This document shows, piece by piece, positions 34,097-37,086 of a DNA stretch of 43,450 nt. The DNA is from Enterococcus sp. (GTDB lineage Bacteria; Bacillota; Bacilli; Lactobacillales; Enterococcaceae): the NCBI RefSeq assembly GCF_022711995.1, contig NZ_JALAHI010000139.1, forward strand, positions 1 through 43,450, given 5' to 3'. The translations under genes and the position numbers were made by a program. Numbering within the stretch: position 1 is the first letter of the stretch; every line of letters begins with the position of its first letter. The notes under the pieces are model-generated. The model made no database searches. It was not told the origin of the DNA and worked only from the letters and a program-made list of their open reading frames with translations.

Positions 34097-34549
34097 TTAT
34101 TCTTGTACTGTTTGCACTGTGATTGTAGCAGTTACTTTAGAATGTAATTTGACGGGTACCTTTGTATACCCTAATGCTCGAATTGGCTGTTCCAACTCAA
34201 TTTTTCGTTTATCTAACTTAATACTGTATTGTTTATTTAATGCATCAGCAATTTGTTTAGATGGAATAGAGCCAAATAAGCGACCATCTTCTCCTGCTTT
34301 CGCTTTAATTTTAACAACAGTTTCTTCTTTTTCAAGAATTTTTTTTAGTTCCTCAGCTTCTGCCAATATCTCTGCTTCATGTTTTTCTTGTGCTTTTTGT
34401 TTTCCTTTTAGTTCGGCCATACTTTCATTATTAGCAGGTTTAGCTAAGTTATTTTTAATTAGGAAGTTTTGAGCGTAACCATTAGGTACCTCCTTGATGT
34501 CTCCTTTTTTTCCTTTTCCTTTGACATCTTGCAAGAAAATAACTTTCAT
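34097..34549 (-). CDS. rplI: 50S ribosomal protein L9
   Basis: L9 has an N-terminal RNA-binding domain ([17 protein letters not shown]), a long connecting helix (about 40-75) and a C-terminal domain. It is 150 residues from ATG 34549; a tandem ATG at 34552 would add one Met, and AAGGAG suits both. It starts 13-14 bp after the gdpP stop and so shares its transcript, the usual gdpP-rplI pairing of Bacilli. Confidence 0.96.
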
Positions 34550-34562
34550 CATTAGTCACTCC

Positions 34563-36014
34563 TTATTCGTTTTCTAAATTGTTAAGTTCTTGAACTAACA
34601 TTTTTTTGACTTCATCCAAGCTTTTATCTTTGATTTGAGTCGCCGCATTTGTGAAATGGCCACCTCCGCCTAGCGATTCCATTAATACTTGCACGTTAAT
34701 TTTCCCTGTGCTTCTAGCACTAATACCGATCAACTTACTAGGCTGCCTTGTGATTACAAAAGCAGCATGAATCCCATTAATTGATAAAAGAGTATCCGCT
34801 GCCTTAGCGACTGTCACACTATCATAGACTCTATTGTCATCAGCTACTGCGATAACTATATCTTCTTTATAATGTTTACTTTTAGAAACTAACTCACTAA
34901 TCATTAAATAAGAATCCAGATCTGTACTAAGCATATATTGAACAAGCGAAGTATCTGCTCCTTGATTTTTAAGATATCCAGCAATATCAAAGGTTCTAGC
35001 TGTTGTTCGAACAGAAAAATTCTTTGTATCAACATAAATTCCCGCCAATAAAGAAGTAGTAATAAATTTTGGAATTTGCGTCTTGCGAGTAGAACGATAC
35101 TGTATTAATTCAGCGACTAATTCTGAAGCTGAAGATGCTGTGGATTCAATATAGGTCAATAATGGTTTATCTGGAAATTCATCCCCTCGTCGGTGATGAT
35201 CGATCACAGCAATTTTATCAAAGACGTCATAGACTTTTTGTGAAATCGACATAGATGGCTTATGATAGTCAACCATTACTAAGACGCTCTCTTCATCGGA
35301 TAACGCTACAGCTTCATCTCCGGAGATAACAATGCGTTCTAAATCAGGATATTTCTTCAATTCCGCTAATACCCGTTCAATATCTGCAGTGATTTCTTTA
35401 GGATTTAATATAATGTAACATTCTCGTTCACTCATCATTGCCATATAAGCAACTCCAAAGGCCGCACCTAAAGCATCCATATCTGGATACCTGTGTCCCA
35501 TAATAAACACCTTTTTGTTGTCAGCAAATATTTTTTTTAATGTAGTACTCATCGCACGAGAGCGAACACGCGTTCTTTTAGGAGTACCATCTGTATTACC
35601 ACCAAAAAACTGAGGCTTTGCTTCTTCATCTGCTTTTTTCAATACTACTTGATCCCCACCACGTACTAAAGCAATATCTAAATTATTCTGAGCTACTTCG
35701 CCTATTGTCTCCAAAGATTCCTTCCCATAAGAAATTCCCATACTGATAGTTAAGGCTAAATCATTCTTTTCAGCAATATTGCGAACACGTGTCAAAAACT
35801 CAAAATTTCCCTGTTTCATCTTATCAATATCTTCAATTTTGGCAACAAAAAGAAAGCGCTCAGAATTAATTCGCTTATAAAAGATATGATTTTCACTGGC
35901 CCAATCTGAAATTAGTGTCGTGATCAATGAGTTCAAGTAGGATATTTGCTTGTCATCTTTTTTGTCAATTAGATCATCATAGTTATCAATTGAAATAAGT
36001 CCGATTGCTGACAT
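34563..36014 (-). CDS. gdpP: c-di-AMP phosphodiesterase GdpP, lacking the membrane and PAS part
   Basis: GdpP hydrolyses cyclic di-AMP. The usual protein is about 655 residues: two membrane helices, a PAS domain, a degenerate GGDEF domain, then DHH and DHHA1. Here only 483 residues are present, starting inside the GGDEF region (SAIGLISIDNYDD). The catalytic part is complete: GHRYPDMDA (His174, Asp178, Asp180), Asp249 in VMVDYHK, DHH at 272-274, Asp329 in GIYVDTKNF and GGGGHFTNA (449-457). The start is real: TGAGGAG lies about 8 nt before the ATG, and an in-frame TAA stands 3 nt upstream of that ATG. Only 254 bp separate it from rpsR, too short for the missing 170 residues. The product should be soluble. 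Confidence 0.9.
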   Translation of the reverse strand: MSAIGLISIDNYDDLIDKKDDKQISYLNSLITTLISDWASENHIFYKRINSERFLFVAKIEDIDKMKQGNFEFLTRVRNIAEKNDLALTISMGISYGKESLETIGEVAQNNLDIALVRGGDQVVLKKADEEAKPQFFGGNTDGTPKRTRVRSRAMSTTLKKIFADNKKVFIMGHRYPDMDALGAAFGVAYMAMMSERECYIILNPKEITADIERVLAELKKYPDLERIVISGDEAVALSDEESVLVMVDYHKPSMSISQKVYDVFDKIAVIDHHRRGDEFPDKPLLTYIESTASSASELVAELIQYRSTRKTQIPKFITTSLLAGIYVDTKNFSVRTTARTFDIAGYLKNQGADTSLVQYMLSTDLDSYLMISELVSKSKHYKEDIVIAVADDNRVYDSVTVAKAADTLLSINGIHAAFVITRQPSKLIGISARSTGKINVQVLMESLGGGGHFTNAATQIKDKSLDEVKKMLVQELNNLENE

Positions 36015-36060
36015 AATTTAACTCCTCAATAAACTGCTATAGAAAATTAAACACTTTTAT

Positions 36061-36069
36061 ATTTTACCA
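36061..36069 (-). promoter_or_regulatory. Extended -10 promoter of the shortened gdpP
   Basis: The minus strand reads TGGTAAAAT at 36061-36069, an extended -10 element about 46 bp before the ATG. The position of a -35 box would fall at the edge of the 44-bp palindrome. Confidence 0.5.
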
Positions 36070-36087
36070 CATCTTATACGAATAAGC

Positions 36088-36131
36088 GATTTCCTGAAAA
36101 AAGTTTCACGTGAAACTTTTTTCAGGAAATC
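36088..36131. promoter_or_regulatory. Perfect 44-bp palindrome with parS-like core
   Basis: Bases 36088-36109 and 36110-36131 are exact reverse complements with no spacer. The core GTTTCACGTGAAAC (36103-36116) equals 14 of the 16 bases of the ParB site consensus TGTTTCACGTGAAACA; the outer bases here are A and T. The core is flanked by A6 and T6, so in RNA it could also act as a bidirectional terminator. It lies about 370 bp to 7 kb from other origin-proximal landmarks, where parS sites cluster. Confidence 0.75.
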
Positions 36132-36220
36132 ATAAATCAAATAAAGAAATGAATTTATTGTTATTTAAAATCGCGATTAAATAACATATAAGAGAAAATA
36201 AACAACAAACATAAATGACA

Positions 36221-36259
36221 AAAAAAGTTGACAAATGTCAAAGACGTTTGTCAACTTTT
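36221..36259 (-). terminator. Terminator of the rpsF-ssb-rpsR operon
   Basis: GTTGACAAATGTC (36227-36239) pairs with GACGTTTGTCAAC (36243-36255), with one G-U pair in RNA and a 3-base loop. It is followed on the minus strand by a run of T, 14 bases after the rpsR stop. Confidence 0.9.
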
Positions 36260-36268
36260 GAATATATC

Positions 36269-36505
36269 TTATTCTTCGCCTACAAATGGTAGTAATCCCA
36301 TGATGCGTGCGCGTTTAATTGCAACAGTTAGTTTACGTTGGTTTTTAGCTCCAGTTCCAGTTACACGACGTGGTAAAATTTTTCCACGTTCTGAAATGAA
36401 ACGTTTCAACAGTTCTGTATCTTTATAATCGATATGTTCGATATGATTTGCAGCAATATAGTCCACTTTGCGACGTTTGCGTCCGCCTCTTCTTTGTTGT
36501 GCCAT
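36269..36505 (-). CDS. rpsR: 30S ribosomal protein S18
   Basis: S18, 78 residues, pairs with S6 in the 30S platform. Basic start [15 protein letters not shown] and conserved [19 protein letters not shown]. It is the last gene of rpsF-ssb-rpsR; AGGAGGG precedes its ATG and a strong terminator follows. Confidence 0.97.
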
Positions 36506-37070: not shown

Positions 37071-37086
37071 TGTTTCATGTGAAACA
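37071..37086. promoter_or_regulatory. parS-like site between rpsF and ssb
   Basis: TGTTTCATGTGAAACA differs from the ParB site consensus TGTTTCACGTGAAACA at one base. It occupies the 42-bp gap between the rpsF stop and the ssb start, about 0.95 kb from the 44-bp palindrome. ParB (Spo0J) binding here would fit origin-region chromosome segregation. Confidence 0.7.

What the first reader, a model, noticed from the sequence alone, without database searches (positions are those of the whole stretch)
34563..36268. GdpP without membrane helices and PAS domain, but with intact catalysis and its own start signals
The c-di-AMP phosphodiesterase begins in its GGDEF-like domain; about 170 N-terminal residues are absent, and the 254 bp before it cannot hold them. 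The start has a strong ribosome site, an in-frame stop 3 nt upstream of the ATG and an extended -10 promoter, so this is a settled gene form rather than a random break. All DHH/DHHA1 catalytic residues remain. Family knowledge: the PAS domain binds heme and the helices anchor the enzyme, so this version should be soluble and freed from that input. Effects on c-di-AMP level, osmotic and beta-lactam tolerance are inference.
Basis: partly seen in the sequence, partly recalled or inferred. Interest (0 to 1): 0.72.

Follow-up and report, generated by a model that had tools for sequence, protein, structure and literature searches.

The report
Clade-wide loss of GdpP membrane-sensor half
In a branch of the enterococci, the enzyme that destroys the signal molecule c-di-AMP has lost its membrane anchor and sensor domain but kept its catalytic half, giving a natural test of what the lost parts do.

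Summary
gdpP at 34563-36014 (minus strand) encodes 483 aa: GdpP-type GGDEF, DHH and DHHA1 domains, no transmembrane helices, no PAS. It is not an assembly error: of 105 family genomes, 98 have GdpP, 24 in this short form (every sampled member of five genus-level groups) and 74 in the long form. Named carriers include E. gallinarum, E. casseliflavus and E. italicus. The 23 readable short genes start within one codon of the same homologous position and form one clade in the GdpP-core tree, 100/100; a gyrA+dnaB tree neither confirms nor rejects one origin. A TM-PAS profile matches the 74 long-form genomes and none of the 24 short-form ones. Catalytic residues are conserved; dN/dS is 0.02-0.07 in five measurable pairs. 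The promoter-like extended -10 is shared with long forms, so it is inherited. The nearest long-form group already has a diverged PAS. Most likely this is an active cytosolic c-di-AMP phosphodiesterase without membrane and PAS control; solubility and activity are inferred, not shown.

The parts
34563..36014 (-). gdpP, short form, 483 aa (GGDEF-DHH-DHHA1; no TM helices, no PAS)
35622..35996 (-). GGDEF_GdpP domain (residues 7-131); the start codon lies six residues before it
35037..35513 (-). DHH domain (residues 168-326) with MGHRYPDMDA, VMVDYHKP and IDHHRRG
34581..34826 (-). DHHA1 domain (residues 397-478) with GGGGHFTNAA
36012..36014 (-). start codon; homologous, within one codon, to the chosen start in the 23 readable short-form genes
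36022..36027 (-). Shine-Dalgarno-like GAGGAG
36061..36069 (-). extended -10 TGGTAAAAT; TGTGGTAAAATA identical in the five same-genus genomes aligned; no -35 found by the consensus scan
36102..36117 (.). parS-like palindrome AGTTTCACGTGAAACT inside a terminator-like hairpin (36088-36131) between rpsR and gdpP
36269..36505 (-). rpsR (bS18; name from family knowledge), upstream neighbour
34097..34552 (-). rplI (bL9; name from family knowledge), downstream neighbour, 10 bp after gdpP

Best explanation
This is the GdpP c-di-AMP phosphodiesterase of an enterococcal clade whose common ancestor lost, most likely by one deletion, the DNA for the two membrane helices and the PAS domain while keeping the ancestral promoter; translation now begins just before the GGDEF domain. 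Shown here: the architecture, the distribution, a single clade on the GdpP tree, no detached module, purifying selection, conserved catalytic residues. Inferred: the product is a cytosolic enzyme that still turns c-di-AMP into pApA, no longer held at the membrane and no longer responsive to whatever the PAS senses, so that c-di-AMP control in this clade rests on what remains (the GGDEF domain, direct active-site inhibitors, the cyclase CdaA and the second phosphodiesterase PgpH; domains of the last two are present).
For: 24 short and 74 long among 98 GdpP-bearing genomes of 105; named short forms. Same homologous start. GdpP-core tree, 56 rows: 23 short forms one clade, 100/100, 100% of 200 bootstrap trees. 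TM-PAS profile in 74 of 105 genomes, none short-form. dN/dS 0.018-0.070 over the whole gene in 5 of 7 pairs with measurable dS. Catalytic residues invariant in 36 of the 53 sequences located and aligned with the solved DHH-DHHA1 5xsi. Highest 19-residue hydropathy 0.89-1.40 in 23 short against 2.24-3.23 in 29 long proteins. DAC cyclase domain in 105 of 105 and PgpH-type 7TM-HD domain in 104 of 105 genomes. A review reports the E. faecalis DHH-DHHA1 part alone as about 13-fold more active than full-length GdpP (PMC10243994, passages).
Against: No activity, localisation or c-di-AMP level was measured. The gyrA+dnaB tree (32 of 57 genomes) does not recover the short-form genomes as one clade (2 changes; 0% of 200 bootstrap trees with 1), though one clade is not rejected (AU p 0.191). 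No NCBIfam model passes its cut-off; the best, a GdpP/L9 fusion model, scores 311 of 707 bits. The same review says PAS truncation of S. pneumoniae GdpP did not change activity, so the loss may alter little. In M. bovis GdpP a longer N-terminal cut (residues 1-157) lost the ssDNase activity seen with a shorter cut (PMC10720645, section 15), a warning that N-terminal cuts can change enzymatic properties.
Confidence: 0.75

Rival explanations
1. The loss is functionally near-neutral: the PAS had already lost its role in the ancestor, and the short enzyme behaves like the long one except for location.
For: In the nearest long-form group (g5) the PAS is already diverged: Pfam PAS_GdpP at E <= 0.001 in 1 of 10 g5 genomes against 60 of 64 other long-form genomes; a PVGI-like motif, chosen after seeing the alignment, is absent in 9 of 9 g5 and present in 20 of 20 other N-termini. 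One near-fixed core difference between short and long forms, fewer than the control comparison (1 against 4). PAS truncation of S. pneumoniae GdpP reported without effect.
Against: The membrane helices went too, and 74 of 98 genomes keep the whole module. The E. faecalis result (13-fold) points the other way.
Confidence: 0.3
2. The short GdpP is still brought to the membrane, or still regulated, by a partner protein not recognisable as TM-PAS.
For: No direct evidence; homology searches cannot exclude it.
Against: No TM-PAS fragment in any of the 24 short-form genomes. The rpsR-gdpP gap is 392 bp or less in 18 of the 22 short-form genomes where it could be measured, so no extra gene is constant there; genes elsewhere were not examined.
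Confidence: 0.12
3. The core has taken on a different main activity (for example nanoRNase) after losing its sensor.
For: DHH-DHHA1 enzymes vary in substrate; M. bovis GdpP without PAS has nanoRNase and ssDNase activities (abstract passage; section 15).
Against: Almost no short-specific core changes; catalytic residues unchanged.
Confidence: 0.06
4. The PAS was lost because this clade gave up heme-using respiration and needed no heme sensor.
For: The PAS of GdpP is reported to bind heme; the g5 group with a diverged PAS has no cytochrome bd subunit I match (0 of 10).
Against: That subunit is present in 24 of 24 short-form genomes and has no match in 15 of 15 g4 genomes that keep a long form.
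Confidence: 0.03
5. Assembly deletion or a single-isolate mutation.
For: The window's assembly is fragmented (169 contigs).
Against: 24 genomes in five groups share it, including separately assembled E. gallinarum and E. casseliflavus records.
Confidence: 0.01

Closest known systems
GdpP / YybT c-di-AMP phosphodiesterase (TM-TM-PAS-GGDEF-DHH-DHHA1)
   Same: Orthologue by position before rplI and by the whole GGDEF-DHH-DHHA1 core; catalytic residues conserved.
   Different: Lacks both membrane helices and the PAS domain; starts at the GGDEF domain.
Mycoplasma bovis GdpP (MbovGdpP, PMC10720645)
   Same: GdpP family without PAS (section 15).
   Different: M. bovis keeps an N-terminal transmembrane region and has atypical DHH domains; the enterococcal form has no membrane part and ordinary motifs.
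DhhP / Pde2 / NrnA (stand-alone DHH-DHHA1)
   Same: DHH-DHHA1 enzyme without membrane or PAS parts.
   Different: DhhP consists of DHH-DHHA1 only; the window protein has a GGDEF_GdpP domain, and its NrnA match is far below cut-off (66.9 of 350 bits).
Laboratory constructs of GdpP lacking TM-PAS (e.g. solved DHH-DHHA1 5xsi)
   Same: A piece of GdpP of the kind biochemists make on purpose.
   Different: Here it is the natural, conserved gene product of a clade, and it keeps the GGDEF domain that 5xsi lacks.

Membership tests
GdpP family | GGDEF_GdpP + DHH + DHHA1 in order | tested here: met
   (124.8, 79.6, 51.2 bits, all over cut-off)
GdpP family | Catalytic DHH and DHHA1 motifs | tested here: met
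GdpP family | Gene position directly before rplI, as in relatives | tested here: met
GdpP family, full-length form | N-terminal transmembrane helices | tested here: not met
   highest 19-residue hydropathy 1.11; long forms 2.24-3.23
GdpP family, full-length form | PAS_GdpP domain | tested here: not met
GdpP family | c-di-AMP to pApA hydrolysis | not testable with these tools
   no assay
DhhP/NrnA | DHH-DHHA1 without GGDEF | tested here: not met
   GGDEF_GdpP present; NrnA model below cut-off

The most novel reading that the evidence does not exclude
An entire enterococcal clade has rewired c-di-AMP control: PAS function eroded first in the ancestor shared with the g5 group, then one deletion released GdpP from the membrane as a permanently de-repressed cytosolic phosphodiesterase, with regulation moved to CdaA/PgpH or to the GGDEF domain.
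Probability: 0.35. Interest if true: 0.65.

Novelty: new variant of a known kind. Interest (0 to 1): 0.5.

Why it matters
The review read here in passages calls it a significant gap how external or internal signals reach c-di-AMP through CdaA and GdpP, and suggests that GdpP may sense membrane state (PMC10243994). A clade that lives without the GdpP anchor and PAS, next to close relatives that keep them, is a natural experiment on that question. It also means that models of GdpP regulation taken from E. faecalis or S. aureus should not be applied to E. gallinarum or E. casseliflavus unchanged.

Tried and rejected
Assembly error or single isolate: rejected. Detached TM-PAS gene elsewhere in the genome: searched with Pfam PAS_GdpP (this model misses 13 of 74 long forms) and with a profile of 26 of the 29 enterococcal N-termini located; none found (for G002, 34 of 35 first-look candidates were scored). 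Heme-loss explanation: rejected by the cytochrome bd distribution. Short-specific core substitutions as signs of adaptation: one near-fixed difference (residue 424, Q in 22 of 23 short, R in 30 of 30 long) against 4 in a control comparison, so nothing beyond drift (that script stopped with an error in its last part, which was redone). Confirmation of one origin from gyrA+dnaB was inconclusive (32 of 57 genomes had both genes long enough, so 25 were dropped, among them all four g6 genomes). A both-hexamer promoter scan found no minus-strand promoter. A census of short forms outside the family was not possible: searched drawn samples and list only their best rows.

Full report
The gene. The window lies in a genome of 3.49 Mb in 169 contigs. 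Its GdpP is 97% identical to that of E. gallinarum NBRC 100675, but a relative at the same protein identity (G002) shows dS of about 0.63, so the window is probably a near relative of E. gallinarum rather than the same species. gdpP at 34563-36014(-) encodes 483 aa with GGDEF_GdpP, DHH and DHHA1 domains over their Pfam cut-offs and no PAS. The highest 19-residue hydropathy mean is 1.11. The start codon lies six residues before the GGDEF match, with GAGGAG upstream and an in-frame stop one codon before it. The gene lies between rpsR and rplI, as in the relatives read.

Distribution by name. Of 27 loci from genome contigs read for frame length, five have the short form (E. gallinarum, E. casseliflavus, E. 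sp. 8G7_MSG3316, E. sp. RIT-PI-f, E. italicus); E. innesii GAL7 starts at the same place but its frame is interrupted; 19 have frames of 650-693 aa (among them E. asini, ratti, thailandicus, canintestini, lactis, dispar, durans, villorum, diestrammenae, rivorum and a record titled E. faecalis 13-SD-W-01); E. mundtii Pe161 has a long-form beginning but an interrupted frame; and one is a distant non-enterococcal record with a 589 aa frame.

Distribution over the family. Of 105 genomes, 98 have a GdpP match: 24 short (group codes g1 6, g6 4, g7 2, g8 3, g17 9, every sampled member of those groups; G003 of g1 has a broken frame) and 74 long. Among the long forms G038 and G072 are frame-broken and G049 is split at the ends of its record. 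Seven genomes have no match (G062-G065, G068, G069, G093), and the GGDEF_GdpP model is also negative in 7 of 7 of them while positive in the window genome.

One origin. In 57 genomes read in detail the 23 readable short forms all have an ATG within one codon of the same place (M-x-[AV]-IG or one residue more). The start was chosen by homology and by the Shine-Dalgarno sequence; in E. italicus and E. sp. 8G7_MSG3316 another in-frame start codon lies five codons upstream. The 29 long forms used have 154-171 further residues. In the maximum-likelihood tree of the GdpP core (56 rows, G003 left out) the 23 short forms are one clade, 100/100 and in 100% of 200 bootstrap trees, and the long-form group g5 is its sister. 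The gyrA+dnaB tree (32 of 57 genomes) puts g5 among the short-form groups with weak support (84/68), giving two changes and one clade in 0% of bootstrap trees; holding the short forms together costs 6.5 log units and is not rejected (AU p 0.191). One deletion is best supported by the gene itself; the neighbour genes neither confirm nor exclude it.

Where the missing half went. A profile of 26 enterococcal TM-PAS N-termini (26 of 29 located, from genomes that are among those searched) matched 74 of 105 genomes, exactly the long-form carriers, and none of the 24 short-form or 7 GdpP-less genomes. No detached TM-PAS module was found.

Start signals. An extended -10 (TGn plus TA and at least 5 of 6 of TATAAT) lies within 250 nt upstream of 22 of 23 short and 28 of 29 long forms: 50 of 52 against 7.6 expected from mononucleotide shuffles. 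Five genomes of the window's genus code share TGTGGTAAAATA exactly. A scan demanding a -35 as well found no minus-strand promoter, so the promoter is likely but rests on the -10. Because long forms have it too, it is inherited, and the deletion removed coding DNA behind it.

Is it functional? dN/dS over the whole gene is 0.018-0.070 in five of seven pairs tested; in the other two dS was saturated, and dS near 1 in three of the five makes those ratios rough. GGDEF and DHH-DHHA1 are alike (0.018-0.075) (a simple Nei-Gojobori script). In 36 of the 53 intact sequences located (17 short, 19 long) MGHxxPDMD (172-180), D249, DHHRR (272-276), VDT (328-330) and GGGHF (450-454) are invariant, and the window protein aligns over these parts with the solved chains 9n0l and 5xsi. 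The DAC cyclase domain is present in 105 of 105 and the PgpH-type 7TM-HD domain in 104 of 105 family genomes, so the pathway is there.

A PAS already on its way out. In g5, the long-form sister, Pfam PAS_GdpP is found in 1 of 10 genomes against 60 of 64 other long forms. N-terminal identity between g5 and groups g2, g3, g4, g13, g14 and g16 is 0.193 against 0.278 among those groups, while core identity is 0.621 against 0.655. A PVGI-like motif, picked after seeing the alignment, is missing in 9 of 9 g5 N-termini and present in 20 of 20 others. This suggests, but does not prove, that the PAS had lost its constraint before the deletion. The simple heme story fails: cytochrome bd subunit I occurs in 24 of 24 short-form genomes and has no match in 15 of 15 g4 genomes that keep a long form.

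Beyond the family. In the order-level sample 359 of 395 genomes have GdpP; of the 82 rows listed outside the family, 81 have frames of 640-702 aa and one (G113) 542 aa, the last with a full-length-sized stretch between rpsR and its GGDEF domain (747 bp), so probably a broken long gene. In the class-level sample (398 genomes, 342 with a GGDEF_GdpP match) every row listed has a frame of 655-723 aa. Both lists are cut to the best rows, so short forms elsewhere are not excluded.

Literature. The review PMC10243994 (passages) says that GdpP is tethered by two N-terminal helices and has PAS and GGDEF domains, that the E. faecalis DHH-DHHA1 part is about 13-fold more active than full length, that PAS truncation in S. 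pneumoniae had no effect, and that how signals reach CdaA and GdpP is a gap. PMC10720645 (passages and section 15) describes a PAS-less GdpP with a transmembrane region in M. bovis. PMC11633384 (passages) reports gdpP and pgpH mutations and raised c-di-AMP in E. faecalis under beta-lactam selection. None of the titles and abstract beginnings listed by ten searches (open-licence papers, best rows only) announces a natural TM-PAS-less GdpP in enterococci; that is not proof that it is undescribed.

Verdict. A real, clade-wide, probably single-origin domain loss in a well-known regulator: a new variant of a known kind. The anatomy is firm; the consequence (a cytosolic, de-repressed enzyme) is inference.

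Noticed in passing
36102-36117, 37071-37086 and 2642-2657: Three palindromes close to the ParB-binding parS consensus (recalled: TGTTTCACGTGAAACA) with 2, 1 and 2 mismatches; mononucleotide shuffles give 0.07 per window at up to 2 mismatches. 49 of 57 gdpP stretches read have at least one such site, many perfect and many just upstream of gdpP. The one next to gdpP lies in a hairpin called terminator-like and is the only exact GTTTCACGTGAAAC in the genome.
   Followed up: partly
G062, G063, G064, G065, G068, G069, G093 (family genomes): Seven family genomes have no GdpP by protein and by GGDEF_GdpP model, five of them 99-100% complete; all but G063 have a PgpH-type domain and all have a DAC cyclase.
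   Followed up: partly
g5 long forms, e.g. L085-L090: PAS domain diverged and PVGI-like motif lost in the sister group of the short forms.
   Followed up: partly
L062, L081, L082, L067: In four short-form genomes the rpsR-gdpP gap holds about 0.9, 2.0, 3.8 and 5.2 kb instead of 155-392 bp; content not examined.
   Followed up: no
G000:C119 and G000:C69: The window genome has two cytochrome bd subunit I matches on different contigs, where the five other genomes of its genus have one.
   Followed up: no
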